64,000 bases of DNA from Neptunicoccus cionae. Lineage in GTDB: Bacteria; Pseudomonadota; Alphaproteobacteria; Rhodobacterales; Rhodobacteraceae. Location: NCBI RefSeq assembly GCF_014643735.1, contig NZ_BMKA01000002.1, positions 248,001-312,000 of the forward strand, written 5' to 3'. Below, in pieces: positions 9,682-35,920 of the stretch. The position numbers and the translations under genes are program-made. The notes beneath the pieces were generated by a model, which had not been told where the DNA came from, did no database searches, and worked only from the letters and a program-made list of their open reading frames with translations. The number at the start of each line of letters is the position of its first letter. The first letter of the stretch is position 1.

Positions 9682-11070
9682 ATGAGCCAGAACCCTCCCA
9701 GCCTCCGCCCCGATCTTGCCCCGCAAGCCCGTTTCTCCGATGCCCCACGCGACGGCCAGCCGAAAATCGGCATGGTCTCTCTGGGCTGTCCGAAAGCGCT
9801 GGTGGATTCCGAACGCATCCTGACCAGACTGCGGGCCGAGGGCTATGCCATTTCGCCGGATTACTCCGGTGCGGAAGCGGTGATCGTAAACACCTGCGGG
9901 TTTCTGGATTCCGCCAAAGCCGAGAGCCTTGAGGCCATTGGTGAAGCGTTGAACGAGAACGGCAAGGTAATCGTAACGGGCTGTCTTGGTGCTGAAGAAG
10001 ACTACATCCGCGGCACCCACCCGAGCGTTCTGGCGGTGACAGGCCCACACCAATACGAACAAGTGCTGGATGCGGTTCACACCGCCGTGCCGCCCAGCCC
10101 CGATCCGTTTATTGATCTGCTGCCGGCGCAAAACGTGTCCCTGACCCCGCGCCATTACAGTTACCTCAAAATTTCCGAGGGCTGTAACCACAAATGCAAA
10201 TTCTGCATCATTCCTGATATGCGCGGGCGTCTGGCGTCCCGCCCCGCCCATGCCATCCTGCGCGAAGCGGAAAAGCTGGTGGATGCGGGGGTGAAGGAAC
10301 TGCTGGTGATTTCGCAGGATACCTCCGCCTACGGGCTGGACCGCCGCCACGATATGAACCCGTGGAAAGATGGTGAGGTGCGCTCTCATATTACTGACCT
10401 GACCCGTGAACTCGGCCAGCTTGGCGCTTGGGTGCGGCTGCATTATGTCTATCCCTACCCGTTTGTGCGCGACCTGATCCCGATCATGGCGGACCCGAGC
10501 AATGGCGTGCTGCCCTATCTTGATATTCCGTTCCAACACTCCCACCCTGATGTGCTCAAACGCATGGCGCGCCCTGCGGCCAGTGCGAAAACGCTGGACG
10601 AGATCGCGGCGTGGCGGGCCACCTGCCCCGACATCACCCTGCGCTCCACGTTTATTGTCGGCTACCCCGGTGAAACCGAGGCCGAGTTTCAGCACCTGCT
10701 GGATTGGCTGGACGAGGCGCAACTGGATCGGGTCGGCTGTTTCCAGTACGAAAACGTAGACGGCGCACGTTCAAACGCGCTGCCCGATCATGTGCCGGAC
10801 GAGGTAAAGCAAGATCGCTGGAACCGCTTCATGGAGAAATCCCAAGCGATTTCCGAAGCGAAACTGGAAGCCAAAGTCGGCAAAACGATGCAAGTCATTG
10901 TGGACAGCGTAGAAGAAGACGGCGCCACCTGCCGCACCATGTCCGACGCACCCGAGATCGACGGCAACCTGTTCATCGACGAAGGCTTTGAGGGGCTGAG
11001 TGCGGGTGATCTGGTGACAGTCGAGGTGGACGAGGCGTCAGAGTATGACTTGTGGGGGAAGGTTTTGTGA
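9682..11070 (+). CDS. rimO: Ribosomal protein S12 methylthiotransferase RimO
   Basis: RimO is a radical-SAM enzyme that adds a methylthio group to an Asp of ribosomal protein S12. In this 462-residue protein, the N-terminal UPF0004 domain has cluster cysteines C36, C72 and C101. The radical-SAM domain has the CNHKCKFC motif (C168, C172, C175). A TRAM domain closes the C-terminus (about 395-462). I chose ATG 9682. A TTG at 9652 would add ten residues without a better ribosome site. The last codons carry GGGGGAAGG, which serves as ribosome site for the downstream GIY-YIG gene that overlaps the stop codon by 4 bases (GTGA). Confidence 0.95.
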
Positions 11071-11930
11071 AGTCTGGTTGGGTTTATGCACTGTACTCAA
11101 ATCAGTCTCCTTTAATCAAAATAGGCTTGACAACAACATCACCTGCAAAGCGAATAAGAGAGATCAACTGCAGTAAAAACTACGGCCCGTTGGGACCGTG
11201 GTTACAACTGGATGTGCGTCAGGTCAAAGATACACGCGGTATAGAAAAAACACTGCACAGGCAACTAAATCATTACGCTCACAAAGATGTGCCTACCGCA
11301 TCCGAGCTTTTTGAGATTTCGCCTAATCAAGCAAGAGAGGCACTATTGCAGATTCCTGCCTCTGAGCTCCTCGCACCTTTGCCTATTACAAATCTAAATC
11401 TTGAACCCGATTTCGTTGCATACCTAATTGCACTTTTCAGGAATTCGGGCATTGAAAATTTTCGGGATATTCAAGAGAGTTGGACTTTCTCACTCTTTCC
11501 TAAGACCGATGGCGGCAGGTTCTTCACCTTAAACATAGATAAACACGAGGTAGCATTTAGTCGTCCCATCGCAAGCGAACCGCCTCTCGTTCATCATGAA
11601 ATTGTTGTAGATCACATGGTCCTGAAAGACCGTGATCTAAAGAACTGGGTTAGAGAAAACGGCGGTTTAATAAAAAAAACTCAATATAAATCTAGCTGGG
11701 GCAATGCCAGTACATTGGTGTTCCAATCCACATTTGATCAAGCGCGCACCTTATTTCAATTTCCAGGTTTTCGGCGGGCGTTGATTGCGTATTGGTATGA
11801 AGCCTTATTACGGATGCAAGATAGGGGAACTCGGAGCTTTTTTGCGAAAAACCACAACTACGATGCTGTTAGCGAAATTTTCCGACATATGTCCGAAGCG
11901 CACTCCTTTCGAGCAAGGCTAGAAAATTAG
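11067..11930 (+). CDS. GIY-YIG (T5orf172-like) nuclease-domain protein
   Basis: A 287-residue protein. Residues 1-85 look like a GIY-YIG/T5orf172 domain: GWVYALYS at the start, KIGLT at about 19-23, an Arg in AKRIREIN, then KTLHRQL with a His and a terminal Glu-containing segment. The remaining 200 residues match nothing I know. The start is GTG 11067, overlapping the rimO stop and preceded by GGGGGAAGG. The gene is visibly AT-richer than its surroundings and uses codons such as AAA, ATA and TTA freely, which suggests recent transfer. GIY-YIG proteins include homing and restriction endonucleases, but no partner methylase is nearby, so the function is open. Confidence 0.8.
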
Positions 11931-16848: not shown

Positions 16849-17826
16849 ATGACACCCGCAATGAACGGCGCGCATCCATATCGCTCCACCCTGATCGTTC
16901 TGGCGATTTTCTTGGGTTGCGGTGTGCTGGCCTTCGCGACCGCATCGGGTGAGGACATCTGGCACCAGATCACCCTGCTCTCCCTGACACAGATTGGCAT
17001 CCTTCTGGCTTTGTCGCTGGTCAATTACACGTTCCGCGCACTTCGCTGGTTCCTTTACGGTCGCGCCCTTGGGCTGGACCTTGGTGTGCTGCAAGTGCTG
17101 CGGCATTATCTCGGTGGCTTTGCCCTGACCATGACGCCAGGGCGTCTGGGAGAATTGGTGCGCGTGCGCTGGATCAACCGCGAAACCGGCGCCAGTGTGG
17201 AACGCACGGCACCTTTGGTGCTTGTGGATCGTGCGGCTGATCTCGCCTCCTCCGGCCTGTTGCTGGCGGCTGCGATGCTGGTTATGGCGGGTGGGATTAG
17301 CGGGGGCATTCCCGTTGCCATCATCGCCATCCTCGCAGCAATCGTCGCGACCCGCCCTACCCTGTTCCGCTGGTGCGTTACCATGCTGTTCAAGCTGATC
17401 GGACGCAAGCCGCGCCTGTTTGCCCGCGCCCGCCGCGCGGCGCAATCGCTGAAACCTTTCTCCCAACCGGCCATCGCGCTGCCCGCCTTTGCGCTGGGGT
17501 TTCTCGGCTGGTTTGCAGAAGGTTACGCCTTTTATCTGCTCTTGGACTGGATGGGCGCCAGCCTGCCTGTCTGGACCTGTGTCGGCATCTTTGTTTTTGC
17601 CATGATGACCGGCGGCGCCACCGGATTGCCCGGCGGCGTAGGCGGTGCCGAAGCCGCAATGCTTGCGCTTCTCTCATTGCAAGGCGTGCCGTTGGAAATC
17701 GCGCTGCCTGCCACTGCTATCATCCGCATTACAACGCTCTGGTTCGCGATCGGACTGGGTGTTCTGATCTTCCCGATCGCCGAAACCGCTGCCGCACGGA
17801 GGCCACATGCGCTGGAAAACCGCTGA
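16849..17826 (+). CDS. Flippase-like membrane protein (YbhN/LPG-synthase TM family)
   Basis: A 325-residue inner-membrane protein with about eight helices, of the UPF0104/YbhN family (lysylphosphatidylglycerol-synthase transmembrane region). Characteristic parts are NYTFRALRWFLYGRALG (about 59-75), FALTMTPGRLGELVRVRW (about 91-108) and TGGATGLPGGVGGAEAAML (about 252-270). Family members are thought to move or modify lipid-linked substrates. The next gene starts 20 bases before its stop, and with the DprE-like pair downstream it plausibly handles a polyprenyl-phosphate sugar. That role is inference. Confidence 0.85.
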   Translation: MTPAMNGAHPYRSTLIVLAIFLGCGVLAFATASGEDIWHQITLLSLTQIGILLALSLVNYTFRALRWFLYGRALGLDLGVLQVLRHYLGGFALTMTPGRLGELVRVRWINRETGASVERTAPLVLVDRAADLASSGLLLAAAMLVMAGGISGGIPVAIIAILAAIVATRPTLFRWCVTMLFKLIGRKPRLFARARRAAQSLKPFSQPAIALPAFALGFLGWFAEGYAFYLLLDWMGASLPVWTCVGIFVFAMMTGGATGLPGGVGGAEAAMLALLSLQGVPLEIALPATAIIRITTLWFAIGLGVLIFPIAETAAARRPHALENR

Positions 17827-19129
17827 ACTGACCGGCTGGGGCCGTGTATTAACCGGAAAGGCCGAACTGGCCCGTCCGGAGAAACCGGCTGCCCTGTCGC
17901 AAATCCTAAAGAAGAGCCCCGCGCCTGCCATCGGCGCGCAGCGCTCTTACGGGGATGCGGCGGTAAACGGCAACGGTCGCGCCATCGACATGACCCGACT
18001 GGACCGATTTATCAGCTTTGATCCTGAAACAGGTATTCTTCACGCCGAAGCGGGCTGTTCCATCACCGATATGCTGGACACATTCGCCCCCCAAGGCTGG
18101 ATGCCTGCGGTCATGCCGGGCACAGGATTTGCCACGCTCGGCGGGTGTATTGCCCACGATGTTCACGGCAAGAACCACCATAAGGCAGGAACCTTCGGTC
18201 AGCATGTCGTAGCGGTTGACCTTATGGGGGCGGATGGCAGCACCAAAACCATCACCCCTGAAAGCGATCCGGCCCTGTTCAAAGCCACAATCGGCGGCTT
18301 GGGCCAGACCGGCGCCATCGTGTCAGCTAAAATCAAAATGATCCCCTGTTCCTCCCGCTTGATACAAGTGGACGAACGCCGCGCTGCCAATCTGGTAGAG
18401 TTCATGGAGATGCTAAAGGCTTCAAACGCGACGTATTGTGTCGGCTGGATCGACGGCACGGCCAACGGCCAAAGCCTCGGGCGTGGCATTCTGGAAGAGG
18501 CAGAGCTGACCAGCTCAAACATGGCCCCGAAACGGCGCAAGCCGCGCAAAGTGCCGTTCAACGCGCCGAAATTCGCACTCTCGCCGCCCACAGTGCGCCT
18601 GTTCAACCGGATGTATTTCAACCGCATCCCGAAACAGGGGCGTGGCGTGTTGCGCAGCCTGAAGGATTTCTTTTTCCCGCTCGACAAAATCCACGACTGG
18701 AACAAACTCTACGGCAAACGCGGCTTTCACCAGTTCCAATGCGTCCTGCCCGATGAAACAGCCGAGCGCACCCTGCGCGACATGTTGCGCCTGATTGCCG
18801 ATGCGGGACTTGCCTCGCCACTTGCCGTACTGAAACGCACGGGCGCGGGACGGGCGGGGCTCCTCTCCTTCCCGATGGAAGGTTTCACGCTGGCGCTGGA
18901 TTTTCCCAACAGCGAAAAATCCCGTGCGCTGGTGGCCCAACTAAACGCACTGGCCGCCGAAGCCGGAGGCCGCATTTATTTCGCCAAAGACAGTCTGGCC
19001 ACCGCGGCGCAGGCCCGTCAGATGTATCCCGAACTGGCGGAATGGCAGAAAACCGTTGAGGCAGCCGATCCGGAAGGCGCCTTCAAAACCGATCTTATCC
19101 GCCGCCTGAAACTGAGGACTCCCGCATGA
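17807..19129 (+). CDS. DprE1-like FAD-dependent decaprenylphosphoryl-ribose 2-oxidase
   Basis: A 440-residue flavoenzyme closely resembling mycobacterial DprE1, which oxidises polyprenylphosphoryl-ribose at C2. The FAD-binding PCMH-type domain has AQRSYGDAAVNG (about 44-55), GTGFATLGGCIAHDVHGKNHH (105-125, with the His120-Gly-Lys122 core) and GGLGQTGAIV. The substrate domain has GFHQFQCVLP, LSFPMEGFTLALDFP and YFAKDS (Lys394). Where M. tuberculosis has the benzothiazinone-target Cys387 (ICVDFP), this protein has Ala363. It overlaps the flippase-like gene by 20 bases and the DprE2-like gene by 4. Confidence 0.88.
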   Translation: MRWKTAELTGWGRVLTGKAELARPEKPAALSQILKKSPAPAIGAQRSYGDAAVNGNGRAIDMTRLDRFISFDPETGILHAEAGCSITDMLDTFAPQGWMPAVMPGTGFATLGGCIAHDVHGKNHHKAGTFGQHVVAVDLMGADGSTKTITPESDPALFKATIGGLGQTGAIVSAKIKMIPCSSRLIQVDERRAANLVEFMEMLKASNATYCVGWIDGTANGQSLGRGILEEAELTSSNMAPKRRKPRKVPFNAPKFALSPPTVRLFNRMYFNRIPKQGRGVLRSLKDFFFPLDKIHDWNKLYGKRGFHQFQCVLPDETAERTLRDMLRLIADAGLASPLAVLKRTGAGRAGLLSFPMEGFTLALDFPNSEKSRALVAQLNALAAEAGGRIYFAKDSLATAAQARQMYPELAEWQKTVEAADPEGAFKTDLIRRLKLRTPA

Positions 19130-19863
19130 GCCAGACTTGGATAATACTTGGCGCTGGTTCGGCTATGGGCCGCGCGTTCGCCCGCAAAGCGGCCACACAA
19201 GGGGCGCATCTGGTGCTTGCCGCACGGGATCAGGATGATCTTGACCGGACCGCTGCGGATTGTCTTGCACGGGGCGCAGCTTCGGCGGCGGCTGTGCTGT
19301 TTGACGTGCGCAAACCAGAAAGCTTCGCGCCGATCTATGACGCCGCCAAAGCCAATGACGGTATCATCAACACCGCCGTTTTCGTTGGTTCCATGGCGCC
19401 GCAAGATGATGTTGATGCAGACCCGAATGTGGGTGATCTGACGATACAGGACAGCTTTACCGGACCTGTCAATTTCCTTCACGGGCTCGCCCCAATTATG
19501 GAAGCGCGCAAAGGCGGCACAGTTCTGGGGATCGGATCGGTTGCAGGGGATCGCGGCCGGATCGGGAATTACATTTACGGTGCAGCAAAGGCCGGTTTCC
19601 ACACCTATCTGTCTGGCCTGCGCAACCGTCTGAACCGCAGCGGCGGACATGTTGTCACCGTGAAACCGGGGTTTGTGGACACGGCGATGACTTGGGGGAT
19701 TGAAGGCATGTTCCTTGTCGCCAGCCCCGAACAGATCGCTCAGGACTTATGGACCGCCCATGAAAAGCGTAAAAACACGCTCTATACGCCGTTCTTCTGG
19801 CGCTACATCATGGCGATTATCAAATCCATCCCCGAGCCGATCTTCAAGAAACTGTCGGTTTGA
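19126..19863 (+). CDS. DprE2-like short-chain dehydrogenase
   Basis: A 245-residue SDR with the cofactor motif GAGSAMGRAFARKAA (about 9-23), catalytic Ser138, and Tyr151-x3-Lys155 (YGAAK). The closest functional idea is DprE2, which reduces the 2-keto intermediate from DprE1 to polyprenylphosphoryl-arabinose. Support comes from its ATGA overlap with the DprE1-like gene and from a hydrophobic C-terminus (WRYIMAIIKSIPEPIF) like membrane-associated DprE2 proteins. SDR specificity is hard to read from sequence alone. Confidence 0.82.
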   Translation: MSQTWIILGAGSAMGRAFARKAATQGAHLVLAARDQDDLDRTAADCLARGAASAAAVLFDVRKPESFAPIYDAAKANDGIINTAVFVGSMAPQDDVDADPNVGDLTIQDSFTGPVNFLHGLAPIMEARKGGTVLGIGSVAGDRGRIGNYIYGAAKAGFHTYLSGLRNRLNRSGGHVVTVKPGFVDTAMTWGIEGMFLVASPEQIAQDLWTAHEKRKNTLYTPFFWRYIMAIIKSIPEPIFKKLSV

Positions 19864-19876
19864 AACGGTTCACGTC

Positions 19877-21298
19877 TCAGACAATTTTCCCTGCGGCGTA
19901 GAACATGATCAGGACCGTGACAGCGATGATTGCGACACCGGATTTATCGCGCATGGCAAAAACAATCGGGTCGTAATCCTGCTTCCCCTGCCAACCCAGC
20001 AGCACCATACGGATCTGCCACAGCGCAAGCGGGATAATCGCTAGGCGCAGCATCCAGATATCCTGATAGAGCGTCGCCGCCGTGCCGCTGAACGTATACA
20101 TCAGGAACACCAGCAGCGAAAAGAACACGCCAAGGCCTGCGACATTCACCAGATCCTCCCGGTCCGATTTGCGATAGCCGCGTCCGGGCACTTTGCCGTC
20201 CGATTTCGCAAGGGTCAGTTCGGTCAACCGCTTCACACAACCAAGCGCAAGGAAGGTTGGAAAGATAAGGCCCACCAGCCAGCCCGACGCAGTAACCTGC
20301 GCGGCAAGCCCGCCCGCGATCACCCGCAGAGTATAAAGCGCAGCAAGGGTCGCAATATCGACCCAGCGCATTTTCTTAAGCTTCAGTGAATAAGACAGCG
20401 ACAGCAGCATATAGAGCGCGATCACCCCCAACAGCGCCCAGCCGATGATATACCCGACCCCAAGCGCAAACACCCCAAGCGCAAAGCTCATCAGCATGGC
20501 ATCCGGAATCCGTGCGTTGCCAGACGCGAGCGGTCTGAATTGTTTTTTCGGATGCTGGCGATCCGCTTCCAGATCCAGCAGGTCATTCACGATATAAATG
20601 GACGAAGCCGCTGCCGAAAAAGCGGCAATCGCCAAAATCACACGCATGATCGACAAGGGATCAACGGAATGGGCGGCAATCAGGGGCAGGAACAACAGCG
20701 CGTTCTTGACCCACTGGTGGGGCCGCAACCCCATCGCCAGAGAGCGGCGAGACCATGACTTCTTGACCTGAACAACCTCGACACCGTCCGCTTTCAACTG
20801 GCGGACGACCGAAGGGTGACGTCCGACAACAATCGCCTCGCCCGCCGAACGCCATACCTTGGAATCCAGTTTCTGATCCCCGGCATAGGCATATTGCCCT
20901 TCCCCGAAACGTGCATTCAAGGCAGCTGCCTTGGCTTCCCCTTTCAGGTTTACCGCGCCGTCCGATCCGATGTGATCCCCTTCCACCCCGTGGTAATCGG
21001 CCAACCGCTGCACCAATGTCGTGTCGCTGGCAGAGGCAAAGATCACCTCGCGTCCCTCGGCACGGGCTTCTTCCATATAGGCCTGAATATCCGGATTAAC
21101 CGGAAGCAGTTCCACATTTACATCCGCCAGCTCGGTAATCTCCCGTTTCAGGCGAGCGCGGTCGTTGAAATGGCTGAACACGGTTTTGATGGTTTTCAGG
21201 GGTTGTTTGCCCAAGGCAAGCCAGAATCCCTCAAACAGCATATCGGTCTTTAGAAACGTCCCGTCGATATCTACGGCAAGCGGTCTTTTATTGGTCAT
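19877..21298 (-). CDS. HAD-UbiA fusion: polyprenyl-phosphate phosphoribosyltransferase-like
   Basis: A 473-residue two-domain protein. Residues 1-180 are a HAD hydrolase: DIDGTFLKTD at 10-19 gives the nucleophile Asp, SASD (89-92) is motif II, and GDQKLDSKVW (140-149) is the acidic motif. Residues 185-473 are a UbiA-type membrane transferase with NDLLDLEADRQHP at 238-250 and KKQFRPLASG, matching the pattern of mycobacterial DPPR synthase Rv3806c. This suggests transfer of 5-phosphoribose to polyprenyl phosphate and removal of the 5-phosphate by the HAD part. It converges on the DprE pair and overlaps the transglycosylase stop by 4 bases. Confidence 0.82.
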   Translation of the reverse strand: MTNKRPLAVDIDGTFLKTDMLFEGFWLALGKQPLKTIKTVFSHFNDRARLKREITELADVNVELLPVNPDIQAYMEEARAEGREVIFASASDTTLVQRLADYHGVEGDHIGSDGAVNLKGEAKAAALNARFGEGQYAYAGDQKLDSKVWRSAGEAIVVGRHPSVVRQLKADGVEVVQVKKSWSRRSLAMGLRPHQWVKNALLFLPLIAAHSVDPLSIMRVILAIAAFSAAASSIYIVNDLLDLEADRQHPKKQFRPLASGNARIPDAMLMSFALGVFALGVGYIIGWALLGVIALYMLLSLSYSLKLKKMRWVDIATLAALYTLRVIAGGLAAQVTASGWLVGLIFPTFLALGCVKRLTELTLAKSDGKVPGRGYRKSDREDLVNVAGLGVFFSLLVFLMYTFSGTAATLYQDIWMLRLAIIPLALWQIRMVLLGWQGKQDYDPIVFAMRDKSGVAIIAVTVLIMFYAAGKIV

Positions 21299-22507: not shown

Positions 22508-22681
22508 ATGAAACTGTTTAAATTTGCTAAAGACGAAGACGGCGCTGTAACTGTAGACTGGGTTGTTCTGACAGCCGCACTGGTACTGGTTGGTGGCGTT
22601 GTTGTAACAGCGATCCGCGGCGGCATGGAAGACCTGGCCTCCGACATCAACACCCAGCTGTCCGCGACTTCCGTATCGTAA
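22508..22681 (+). CDS. flp: Flp-type pilin
   Basis: A 57-residue prepilin of the Tad/Flp type IVb system. A short basic leader (MKLFKFAKDEDG) precedes the presumed prepilin-peptidase site after Gly12, then a hydrophobic helix AVTVDWVVLTAALVLVGGVVV forms the fibre core. The usual +5/+6 Glu-Tyr pair is Asp-Trp here, as in some other roseobacter Flp proteins I recall. GGAGG lies seven bases before the ATG. Two hairpins follow, the second a strong terminator, so flp can be expressed well above the rest of the locus. Confidence 0.92.
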   Translation: MKLFKFAKDEDGAVTVDWVVLTAALVLVGGVVVTAIRGGMEDLASDINTQLSATSVS

Positions 22682-32877: not shown

Positions 32878-34482
32878 CTACTGTTTTTGAAGTAAGATAA
32901 ACAGATCGTTTCGCGCGATTTCGCGAAATGAAAGATCGGGGCTTTGCTCGATTGCGTTAAGGATCATGCGGCGCACCCCCTGCCCCATCGGACACAGGGG
33001 CACAACCAGAAAATCAGCCGCATCAAACCCTGCCGTCCCCCCGTAATACCACGGGGCACCGCCTTGCAGGGGTGCCGTACCCGAAAACAACCACAGTCCG
33101 TTAACCCAGTCCGCGTAAAGCACCTCTGCCCCATTGGTCTGGGGGAAGCGGTCCAGCCGCGCGCCGGTCTCGGCCAGATCATTCAGCAGGCCGGTAATTT
33201 TCTGACACGCAGGCAGGGTTTCCCCATTCAAAGTCGCCGATGCGGTTTCGCTTTTAGAAAAGCCGCTCAATGGACGCTCCCCCCTGACGTCCTGAGTGAC
33301 TGCACTTCGGAACCGCAAATCACTCGTGTCCGCATCGTGCAACACCGCAGCGAACCGGTCCGGCTTCAGGCTATTGTGGATCAGAAGAGATTGAAACTGC
33401 GTTATTAACAAGGGCGCACCCAATGCAAACAGCAAGACCGAAACGCTATGCAGCGCCTTTTGCAGCGGCCAACCGAAACGGTTGTAAAGTGTTACGTTCC
33501 GCGCGTACACCATCACGATCAACCCCGCGATCACCAGCCAATGTGGATCGTTCTGCCAATTCTGATGCGCGATCAACATCCACCCGACCGCCAGCACCAA
33601 CAGCACAAGCGCCTCGGGCGATTTCCGCGCCTGACGCAGAAAAAGGATGGCCACGAGAACGGCAAGATTACCGACAATCTGGGACGGAGCCAGCAGCATC
33701 AGTGGCAACGGCGCACCAGGTTGCCCCCGCGCCCCCGATTGCGCAACATAGAGCAGGTCGGCGACATATCCTTGCCAATAAGCCACAGCGCCGAACGGAA
33801 ATGTCACAGCAACCAGCACCACCAACGCCCACATCACCCCGAACCCGAGCATCCGTAGCTGTCCTCGCACCAAAAGGGCGACGATCAGCGCCGGAAGAAT
33901 AAACACGGCAAATGGCGCCTTGGTCAGCGTCAAAAACGCCACACCAATCCCAAGTATCAATGACTCCGCCCAAACCGCTTTCAAACCGAAATGGTGAGGC
34001 GGCAGAACCGCCATAACCACCAGCAATCCGGTCACAGCCCAGCACCAGTTGTTGTAATACATAGAGACGGTAACCGTCGGCTCCACCCCGCCATGCACCA
34101 GCGCCAGCAACTGCACCAGAAACACGCCTCCAAAAGCAAGCGCACCTGCAGGTGAGAATCGTGTGATCCCCACAAAATAGACCGCCGGAAGGCAGATTAA
34201 CCCAATGAACACCGGGGCATATGCAAATGCTGCGCCCAGACCGAAGCCGGCATTCATTAACCAAACAATCGGCTGAAACGCCAAAACTCCGAGCGGGGTG
34301 AGAAAATCGTGATGTGGCAGATCCCCTGCCTGCATGCGCAGTACGATTTGCGCCATATGGATCGCATCCCCATCAAAGCTGAGGATCAGAACCGCACCAT
34401 CATTCACCCGCATCAAAGCAAGCCACGCAAGCAGCCCGATCAGGAATAAGGCATACCAAACCCAGAATAAATTTCGCACCAT
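32878..34482 (-). CDS. GT-C-like integral membrane glycosyltransferase (putative)
   Basis: A 534-residue protein with about 11 membrane helices in the first 385 residues and a soluble C-terminal domain of about 150 residues, probably periplasmic. The first periplasmic loop has SFDGDAIHMAQIVLRMQAGDLPHHDF, resembling the acidic catalytic loop of GT-C polyprenyl-phosphate-sugar transferases. I recognise no specific family. The ATG at 34482 gives a normal first helix. TTG 34512 is an alternative adding ten residues. It lies directly behind tadV and could use a lipid-linked sugar from the 17-21 kb genes, which is inference. Confidence 0.6.
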   Translation of the reverse strand: MVRNLFWVWYALFLIGLLAWLALMRVNDGAVLILSFDGDAIHMAQIVLRMQAGDLPHHDFLTPLGVLAFQPIVWLMNAGFGLGAAFAYAPVFIGLICLPAVYFVGITRFSPAGALAFGGVFLVQLLALVHGGVEPTVTVSMYYNNWCWAVTGLLVVMAVLPPHHFGLKAVWAESLILGIGVAFLTLTKAPFAVFILPALIVALLVRGQLRMLGFGVMWALVVLVAVTFPFGAVAYWQGYVADLLYVAQSGARGQPGAPLPLMLLAPSQIVGNLAVLVAILFLRQARKSPEALVLLVLAVGWMLIAHQNWQNDPHWLVIAGLIVMVYARNVTLYNRFGWPLQKALHSVSVLLFALGAPLLITQFQSLLIHNSLKPDRFAAVLHDADTSDLRFRSAVTQDVRGERPLSGFSKSETASATLNGETLPACQKITGLLNDLAETGARLDRFPQTNGAEVLYADWVNGLWLFSGTAPLQGGAPWYYGGTAGFDAADFLVVPLCPMGQGVRRMILNAIEQSPDLSFREIARNDLFILLQKQ

Positions 34483-34621
34483 TGCCCCCGGGCTGTTGCC
34501 TGTTTCAGACAAGTTAAATCAAACCGTCCCGATCCGCAAAATCAAATACAGTTTTTGTTTACCCATTCAGGGTAGTCAGAGTAGGCTCGATCCATAAAAA
34601 ACATAAAGCAGTGGTGTTGAT

Positions 34622-35920
34622 ATGAACATGCAGGCGCGTACTTTGCATCCGCCCAAGATTCCAATGTCAGTGGCGGCAACGGGGCTTAATCCTGTCTTCG
34701 CGCGGGATATTTTAATTAAGACGATGTTTCGTAAAAACGTCTCGACCCCGGGTGAGGTGGAACAAACGCTGTGCTGCTCTACGCCTGTAGCGCTTGAGTT
34801 GATTGAGATGGCGCGCAGCCAGAACATGCTGGAAGTGACCGGAAAATCCGGCACGGAACTGCGCTATCAGATGTCCGAAAGTGGTAAATCCCGTGCGCTT
34901 GATGCCTTGGCACAATCCGAATACTTTGGTGCCCTGCCAATCCCGCTTGATGATTACCGTGAACAGGTCAAATTGCAATCTGTGGCGGACGTGGGGATTA
35001 CCCAAGAAGCGCTCGAAAATTCAATGGGCCACTTGATTATACCTGACGGGTTGCTCACCCAACTTGGCCCTGCGGTAAATTCCGGCAAGTCGATCCTGAT
35101 GTACGGCCCACCCGGAAATGGTAAATCTTCTATTTCCAACGGCATACGGGATGCTCTCGGGGATAAAATTTTTGTGCCCAAAGTACTGGAATATTCCGGT
35201 CAGGTGATTTCGGTCTACGATCCGATCGTGCACGGTCACGCACAAGAAAGCGCCGCGGACCCGAACTCTCTGCGGCGCACAGGGATGCAGTTCGACAACC
35301 GCTATGTCCTGTGCAACCGGCCTTCGGTTATCACCGGCGGCGAACTAACGCTTAGCATGCTGGAATTGAACTACAACGCCAACTCCAAAACCTATCAGGC
35401 GCCCCTGCAACTGAAGGCAACCGGCGGCGTTTTCATCGTGGATGACCTTGGCCGCCAATCCGAACCGCCACAGGCACTGATCAACCGATGGATTGTCCCG
35501 ATGGAAGGCGGGGAGGATATCTTGTCCCTGCAATCGGGGGAAAAATTCCTCGTCCCATTCGACACGCTGGTGATTTTTTCGACCAACTTCCACCCTGCCG
35601 AAATTTTTGACGGTGCCGCGCTGCGCCGAATTTACTACAAGGTGTTGGTGGACCGCCCGACCCGTGACCAAATGATCCAGATTTACGCGCTGGTGTCCAA
35701 GGCGATGAAAATGCCGCTGGACGAACAGGTTCTGATCCACCTGTTTTCCAAACTCTACCCACAGGTCGACAACACTTATGCGGCCTATCATGCGCCTTTC
35801 CTGTTCACCCAGATGAAATCCATCTGCGATTACGAAGGCCGCCCCCACAAAATGGCAATTGATCTTGTCGAACGGGCTTGGGCCAACTTGTTTGTGGCGG
35901 AATCTGTTGTCGAACACTGA
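34622..35920 (+). CDS. Uncharacterised AAA ATPase with winged-helix-like N-terminus
   Basis: A 432-residue cytoplasmic protein. Residues 28-95 look like a winged helix (VEQTLCCSTPVALELIEMARSQNMLEV). A AAA domain follows with Walker A YGPPGNGKSS (about 160-169), Walker B GVFIVDDLGRQ (about 265-275), sensor VIFSTNFHPAE (about 310-320) and an arginine-finger region ALRRIYYKVLVDRP. A C-terminal helical lid ends with DLVERAWANLFV, like MoxR/RavA-type remodellers. I know no function. It follows the Tad locus and is divergent from the GT-C-like gene. ATGs at 34622 and 34628 are both possible. Confidence 0.8.
   Translation: MNMQARTLHPPKIPMSVAATGLNPVFARDILIKTMFRKNVSTPGEVEQTLCCSTPVALELIEMARSQNMLEVTGKSGTELRYQMSESGKSRALDALAQSEYFGALPIPLDDYREQVKLQSVADVGITQEALENSMGHLIIPDGLLTQLGPAVNSGKSILMYGPPGNGKSSISNGIRDALGDKIFVPKVLEYSGQVISVYDPIVHGHAQESAADPNSLRRTGMQFDNRYVLCNRPSVITGGELTLSMLELNYNANSKTYQAPLQLKATGGVFIVDDLGRQSEPPQALINRWIVPMEGGEDILSLQSGEKFLVPFDTLVIFSTNFHPAEIFDGAALRRIYYKVLVDRPTRDQMIQIYALVSKAMKMPLDEQVLIHLFSKLYPQVDNTYAAYHAPFLFTQMKSICDYEGRPHKMAIDLVERAWANLFVAESVVEH

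What the first reader, a model, noticed from the sequence alone, without database searches (positions are those of the whole stretch)
16849..21298. Polyprenyl-phosphate arabinofuranose-type pathway in a roseobacter
Seen: a DprE1-like flavoenzyme, a DprE2-like SDR overlapping it by 4 bases, a flippase-like YbhN protein overlapping DprE1 by 20 bases, and a convergent UbiA transferase with the Rv3806c-type NDxxDxxxDxxHP motif. Known: in mycobacteria these enzymes convert PRPP and polyprenyl phosphate to polyprenyl-phosphoryl-arabinofuranose, and homologues serve Nod-factor and pilin arabinosylation in a few Proteobacteria. Inference: this bacterium makes a lipid-linked D-arabinofuranose or ribofuranose donor. 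The acceptor is unknown.
Basis: partly seen in the sequence, partly recalled or inferred. Interest (0 to 1): 0.75.

Follow-up and report, generated by a model that had tools for sequence, protein, structure and literature searches.

The report
Arabinose-lipid genes flanking Tad pilus
A marine bacterium carries genes that look able to make a lipid-linked arabinose sugar of the kind used in the tuberculosis cell wall, plus an unrecognised sugar-transfer enzyme, on the two sides of its Tad pilus genes, suggesting that some bacterial pili are coated with arabinose.

Summary
In detail: window 16849-21298 encodes a YbhN/LPG_synthase_TM protein, DprE1-like, DprE2-like and a convergent UbiA. The UbiA protein begins with a HAD-phosphatase domain, so one chain may do the PRPP transfer and the 5-phosphatase step. 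And 11.6 kb away lies an unannotated 544-aa membrane protein (32878-34512) with a predicted GT-C fold (nearest: ArnT, Pmt, AftA, oligosaccharyltransferases). The two pieces flank a Tad/Flp pilus locus. Over 198 genomes of the family, 56 of 59 with the GT-C also have DprE1, against 17 of 139 without it. In the GT-C-less relatives fetched, both sites lack these genes in an otherwise similar neighbourhood. DprE1 with YbhN beside it forms one clade; the other type has GtrA there. Best reading: a polyprenyl-phosphoryl-D-arabinofuranose pathway whose sugar the GT-C transfers, most likely to a Tad pilus component. The donor pathway is well supported, the GT-C role good, the pilus acceptor inferred. 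A pilin C-terminal motif enriched in GT-C genomes failed a tree-based control. Precedents: TfpW in Pseudomonas paraeruginosa (type IVa pili) and Nod-factor noeCNHOP. The papers searched showed no Tad-linked version.

The parts
16849..17826 (+). YbhN-like protein, LPG_synthase_TM family, 325 aa; candidate flippase for polyprenyl-P-Araf (inferred)
   Evidence: PF03706 139.3 bits, TIGR00374 69.9; 50 DprE1 rows with YbhN within 2.5 kb form one clade, while the other DprE1 type has GtrA there
17807..19129 (+). DprE1-like FAD oxidase, 440 aa; Mtb His132 and Lys418 kept, Cys387 is Ala by alignment
   Evidence: PDB E 4e-76
19126..19863 (+). DprE2-like SDR, 245 aa
   Evidence: PDB DprE2 E 1.6e-24
19877..21298 (-). 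HAD phosphatase (about aa 1-180) fused to UbiA-type polyprenyl-P phosphoribosyltransferase (about aa 188-473)
   Evidence: NF006088 490.7 bits; HAD residues D10, D12, K123, D145 and PRTase residues N238, D239, D242, D246, H249 in 20 of 20 aligned; AF2 model matches 8j8j and SerB phosphatases
22508..22681 (+). Flp (type IVb) pilin, 57 aa, C-terminus ...DINTQLSATSVS; candidate acceptor (inferred; label by sequence motif, not by a family scan)
   Evidence: same sequence in L001-L003
22951..32874 (+). Tad pilus assembly locus: RcpC/CpaB, CpaC, OmpA-like, CpaE, CpaF, TadB, TadC, two TPR proteins, TadV
   Evidence: RcpC, OmpA, TadB_TadC_N, T2SSF (twice), TPR (twice), Peptidase_A24 by Pfam; CpaC, CpaE, CpaF labels are recalled from sequence, not scanned
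32878..34512 (-). GT-C fold glycosyltransferase, 544 aa (TTG start uncertain), no Pfam/NCBIfam/PDB sequence match; candidate D-arabinofuranosyltransferase
   Evidence: relative in 27 of 28 DprE1 genomes; AF2 pLDDT 89.2, pTM 0.90; fold matches

Best explanation
The window encodes a polyprenyl-phosphoryl-D-arabinofuranose system dedicated to a Tad pilus. The UbiA half joins PRPP to polyprenyl phosphate; its HAD half removes the 5-phosphate; DprE1-like and DprE2-like enzymes turn ribose into arabinose by oxidation and reduction at C2; the YbhN-like protein moves or helps move the lipid-sugar across the inner membrane (inferred); the GT-C enzyme then transfers arabinofuranose in the periplasm to an acceptor, most likely a protein of the Tad pilus such as the Flp pilin (inferred). 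Shown here: families, folds, conserved residues, joint presence/absence and synteny. Not shown: any chemistry, the flippase, the acceptor.
Confidence: 0.5

Rival explanations
1. The pathway and GT-C are real, but arabinose goes to LPS, capsule or another envelope glycan; the Tad locus is only an old neighbour.
For: Two other DprE1 operons in Rhodobacterales plasmids sit with exopolysaccharide genes or calcium-binding proteins, not Tad. A GT-C relative sits in an operon with no Tad gene annotated nearby. Flanking genes unrelated to pili are also conserved.
Against: GT-C stays beside Tad where the donor genes lie far away (G031, G175). GT-C is rare without Tad (2 of 35), and one of those two, G143, has lost the stretch from within DprE2 through HAD-UbiA and most of Tad.
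Confidence: 0.3
2. The acceptor is a Tad component other than Flp, for example the secretin, RcpC or minor pseudopilins.
For: The pilin motif failed the tree control. RcpC has been linked in preliminary work to Flp glycosylation (PMC12307814, passage), so Tad parts take part in such modification.
Against: Known glycosylation of Tad and type IVa systems is on the major pilin (PMC6182317, PMC12369383, passages).
Confidence: 0.12
3. The donor is used as ribofuranose or the enzymes make another 2-epimer; arabinose is not the product.
For: 13 of 81 genomes with HAD-UbiA have no DprE1 hit, so some lineages may use the lipid-linked ribose itself. DprE1-like and DprE2-like are under curated cut-offs.
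Against: This window has both epimerase halves, overlapping by 4 bases, closest to Mtb DprE1/DprE2 among solved structures.
Confidence: 0.06

Closest known systems
Pseudomonas paraeruginosa D-Araf pathway with TfpW pilin arabinosyltransferase (PSPA7_6245-6251; PMC12369383 and PMC11841053, passages read)
   Same: Donor pathway for D-arabinofuranose used to modify pili; GT-C class transferase; pilus acceptor
   Different: Type IVa pilin; the pathway island and the tfpW pilin cassette are separate loci; here Tad (type IVb) with both parts flanking the pilus locus. TfpW homology to this GT-C was not tested.
Rhizobial Nod-factor operon noeCNHOP (PMC5080398 passages; IRBG74 and S. alkalisoli loci)
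   Same: UbiA, DprE1-like, SDR; the S. alkalisoli UbiA belongs to the same NCBIfam family (392.1 bits)
   Different: GtrA in the YbhN slot; the UbiA match covers only the prenyltransferase half of the model (187-478 of 482); the NoeP-position protein is not similar to this GT-C (hhalign 0.3%); acceptor is a lipo-chitooligosaccharide
Mycobacterial DPA pathway (Rv3806c, DprE1, DprE2) with EmbA-C/Aft transferases (recalled, plus PDB matches)
   Same: Same chemistry expected; GT-C fold of the transferase
   Different: HAD fused to the PRTase; YbhN; Cys387 is Ala; no sequence match of the transferase to a PDB chain at E 1
HAD-UbiA-GtrA-DprE1-DprE2 operons of Rhodobacterales plasmids and genomes
   Same: Same four enzyme types, HAD-UbiA in most
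   Different: GtrA in place of YbhN; separate DprE1 branch; none of the loci shown is next to Tad

Membership tests
DprE1 (NCBIfam equivalog NF053785) | Score over curated cut-off of 500 bits | tested here: not met
   401.9 bits; 0 of 198 family genomes reach it. So called DprE1-like.
DprE1 (Mtb structures) | Full-length match with FAD-site and active-site residues kept | tested here: met
   E 4e-76 over 6-436; RSYGD, HGKNHH (His132) and AKDS (Lys418) kept; Cys387 is Ala (residue roles recalled)
DprE2 (NF053786) | Score over curated cut-off of 250 bits | tested here: not met
   152 bits; PRK07102 259.1 with cut-off 267
PRK08238 UbiA (NF006088) | Score over curated cut-off of 351 bits | tested here: met
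   490.7 bits over 3-469
Decaprenyl-P phosphoribosyltransferase PRK12324 | Score over curated cut-off | tested here: not met
   147.9 with cut-off 207, though fold and motif agree with 8j8j
HAD phosphatase | DxDGT motif, Lys, acidic motif IV, HAD fold | tested here: met
   D10, D12, T14, K123, D145 in 20 of 20; D141 is Asn or Ala in 8 of 20; SerB-type fold matches
HAD phosphatase | Profile score over a curated cut-off | tested here: not met
   No HAD family in Pfam at E 0.001; TIGR01490 20.6 of 98.3 and TIGR01488 19.6 of 45 bits
GT-C glycosyltransferase | GT-C fold with acidic residue in the first periplasmic loop | tested here: met
   D49 and D69 invariant in 24 of 24; topology and catalytic role inferred
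TfpW-type pilin arabinosyltransferase | Sequence homology to TfpW | not tested
   No TfpW sequence in hand; Harvey 2011 and Kus 2008 not held
TfpW-type pilin arabinosyltransferase | Arabinose on a pilin, lost in the mutant | not testable with these tools
   needs mass spectrometry
Tad pilus locus | RcpC, TadB, TadC, prepilin peptidase, Flp | tested here: met
   by Pfam; Flp by sequence motif
GtrA/YbhN flippase for polyprenyl-P-Araf | Transport of the lipid-sugar | not testable with these tools
   only slot replacement shown

The most novel reading that the evidence does not exclude
A GT-C family, found here almost only within one Rhodobacterales family, is the first candidate transferase for Tad pili, decorating Flp pilin with D-arabinofuranose made by a pathway whose flippase is a YbhN protein standing in for GtrA.
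Probability: 0.38. Interest if true: 0.8.

Novelty: new variant of a known kind. Interest (0 to 1): 0.64.

Why it matters
Tad pili are widespread adhesion organelles. Flp1 of Aggregatibacter is reported to be glycosylated (PMC6182317, passage), but I know of no transferase assigned to it (recalled; the listings showed none that I saw). This window gives a concrete gene to delete and a predicted mass shift of 132 Da per residue. It also offers a second candidate family (YbhN) for the flippase step of polyprenyl-P-arabinose, and an HAD-PRTase fusion that could fill the 5-phosphatase step.

Tried and rejected
Pilin C-terminal motif as a signature of the acceptor: chosen after seeing the data; 24 of 48 GT-C loci against 2 of 37, and Ser/Thr in the last 15 residues 0.312 against 0.222, but no support by independent pairs on the CpaF tree (4 supported pairs, means 0.4 same way, 0.1 opposite), so not used as evidence.

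Looking for the transferase on plasmids by tblastn gave no match; profile comparison found the Tateyamaria relative instead. The NoeP-position and Cereibacter proteins are not similar. Class-wide search: 2 of 289 genomes at E 1e-15, G002 itself and one weak hit (61 bits). Missing PRTase in some genomes: 0 of 8 has PRK12324 over cut-off, and no evident extra shared gene in the locus.

Papers searched on Tad glycosylation, DprE1 in Proteobacteria or Rhodobacter gave no such system in the listings (0 papers; 34: 0; 52: 9 of 9 listed; 53: 15 of 384; 83: 10 of 27; 84: 2 of 2; 114: 8 of 241; 115: 2 of 2); preprints and most subscription papers are not in the library. Counts dropped rows as follows: weak GT-C hits G139 and G150 left out of the 59 (61 with them; Tad test with them 58 of 163 and 3 of 35); 16 of 64 GT-C loci and 3 of 40 others had no Flp found; 40 of 50 and 40 of 82 eligible Tad loci were fetched at random; DprE1 rows under 300 aa were left out of the tree, which holds some genomes twice.
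Full report
Observation. Profile and PDB searches place them as LPG_synthase_TM/YbhN, DprE1-like, DprE2-like and UbiA of the PRK08238 family. The DprE1-like protein matches Mtb DprE1 at 4e-76 and the next other solved protein only at 7.7e-11. It keeps the HGKNHH and AKDS segments; the position of Cys387 is Ala. Scores are under NCBIfam's curated cut-offs for DprE1 (401.9 of 500), DprE2 (152 of 250) and PRK12324 (147.9 of 207), and over it for PRK08238 (490.7 of 351).

HAD-UbiA fusion. D10, D12, K123 and D145, and the PRTase residues N238, D239, D242, D246, H249, are the same in 20 of 20 aligned relatives; D141 of motif IV varies in 8 of 20. HAD profiles alone are weak (20.6 and 19.6 bits, under cut-off). 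An AF2 model (pLDDT 87.3, pTM 0.81, 13 rows) matches membrane PRTase 8j8j at E 1.5e-11, rmsd 2.8, and 8j8k at 1.7e-10, ahead of other UbiA structures (2.7e-5 and weaker), and SerB-type phosphatases at prob 1.00, best E 4.3e-4. So transfer of ribose-5-phosphate and dephosphorylation could sit on one chain (inferred).

The Tad locus between. Between HAD-UbiA and the GT-C lie a lytic transglycosylase, the Flp pilin (22508-22681) and a Tad assembly locus. YbhN-DprE1-DprE2 recur in 26 of 28 relatives, HAD-UbiA after them in 17, and CpaB within the fetched stretch in 16 (several contigs end early). In G031 and G175 the donor genes lie 1.6 Mb and about 150 kb away while the GT-C stays 4.5-4.6 kb from TadB. 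In G009-G012 and G016 DprE1 is not near Tad in the fetched stretch, while GT-C and HAD-UbiA are 14-15 kb apart on one contig; whether Tad lies between was not looked at there.

Joint presence and absence. In a sample of 198 genomes of the family I read 73 with DprE1 at 340 bits or more, the next being 82; 61 with GT-C, 59 of them strong; 163 with TadB, 162 over cut-off; 81 with HAD-UbiA at E 1e-60, 77 over cut-off. DprE1 is in 56 of 59 with GT-C and in 17 of 139 without; HAD-UbiA in 53 of 59 and 28 of 139. Fisher values do not correct for kinship, and completeness was not told. GT-C lies 3.9-9.2 kb (midpoints) from TadB in the 47 genomes where both are listed on one contig; of the other 12, four have them on different contigs, six TadB rows were not listed, two have no TadB. 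On a CpaF tree of 87 rows, GT-C changes 11 times (4 forced by supported branches). Over 4 supported independent pairs DprE1 goes the same way in a mean of 2.5, the opposite way in 0.0 and does not differ in 1.5; the number is too small for a test.

Empty sites. In 20 of 20 GT-C-less genomes fetched on that side, TadV is followed by the gene that lies beyond the GT-C in the window (34622), with no GT-C match between. On the other side none of 40 fetched stretches matches YbhN, DprE1 or DprE2 (7 of the 40 are cut by contig ends), and in 22 of 40 (my count) the transglycosylase has, within 1.3 kb, a CoA-transferase gene of the pair that lies before YbhN in the window; one (L198) has a 30% identical HAD-UbiA there. 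So two sites about 11.6 kb apart tend to be filled or empty together in a similar neighbourhood. This links GT-C to the donor pathway more firmly than to Tad.

Two DprE1 types. Of the 17 genomes with DprE1 but no strong GT-C, 15 have HAD-UbiA-GtrA-DprE1-DprE2 in one direction, one has no GtrA found, and one (L225, a 5.4-kb contig) is of the window's type. On a DprE1 tree of 88 rows (66 different; some genomes appear twice) the 50 rows with YbhN are one side of a branch with SH-aLRT 100. Two GT-C genomes, G138 and G215, have a GtrA-type DprE1 (L114, L095) as their listed DprE1, which suggests that the GT-C can draw on either donor set (inferred). GtrA stands in the same slot in the rhizobial Nod-factor loci, so YbhN may do GtrA's work (inferred).

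Independent link of GT-C and arabinose. In Tateyamaria omphalii plasmid pDOK1-4-1 the gene after UbiA-GtrA-DprE1-SDR encodes a distant relative of this GT-C (hhalign 98.9%, E 1.1e-17, 462 columns), with no Tad gene annotated in the 17 kb shown.

Acceptor. Tad linkage (57 of 163 with TadB, 2 of 35 without), the position beside Tad, and precedents favour a Tad component. P. paraeruginosa arabinosylates type IVa pilin, with TfpW as transferase, and this protects from phages (PMC12369383, PMC11841053, passages). Flp1 of Aggregatibacter is reported glycosylated (PMC6182317, passage), and RcpC was implicated in preliminary work (PMC12307814, passage). Against: G128 has GT-C without Tad or DprE1. G143 lacks Tad too, but there DprE2 runs in frame into a TPR gene, the interval with HAD-UbiA and most of Tad being absent, by deletion or misassembly. 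The pilin motif failed its control.

Open point. G013, G015, G181 and G183 have DprE1, GT-C and Tad but no HAD-UbiA hit, nor PRK12324 over cut-off; G019 lacks both too. Their source of polyprenyl-P-ribose is unexplained.

Verdict. Pathway: about 0.85. GT-C as the arabinofuranosyltransferase: about 0.7. Tad component as acceptor: about 0.5. A new variant of a known kind.

Noticed in passing
L207 4579-5001 (IRBG74 plasmid) and L203 5585-6007: By position NoeN of noeCNHOP is annotated as a GtrA-family protein (S. alkalisoli copy NF037976 155.9 bits); PMC5080398 proposed a phosphatase. A flippase helper would also fit reduced but not lost arabinosylation.
   Followed up: partly
L013, L015, L019, L154 (G013, G015, G019, G181): YbhN-DprE1-DprE2 directly followed by the transglycosylase, with no HAD-UbiA over cut-off in the genome: source of lipid-linked ribose unknown.
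   Followed up: partly
L233 10023-11237 (G143): DprE2 residues 1-162 run in frame into a TPR protein; HAD-UbiA and most of the Tad locus between are absent.
   Followed up: yes
window 34622-35920 (+): 432-aa protein next to the GT-C, conserved (57-62% identity) beside Tad with or without GT-C; no Pfam family at E 0.001, weak match to ATPase IteA and a proteasome ATPase.
   Followed up: partly
window 11052-11930 (+): T5orf172/MUG113 protein, found in L002 but not in L001 or L003.
   Followed up: no
L198 8279-9706 (G177): Diverged HAD-UbiA (30% identity) between transglycosylase and CoA-transferase at an otherwise empty site; possibly a remnant.
   Followed up: no
13 genomes, e.g. G032, G072, G094, G112: HAD-UbiA without a DprE1 hit: possible users of lipid-linked ribofuranose; two of the 13 (G047, G097) carry the GT-C and may only have assembly gaps.
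   Followed up: no
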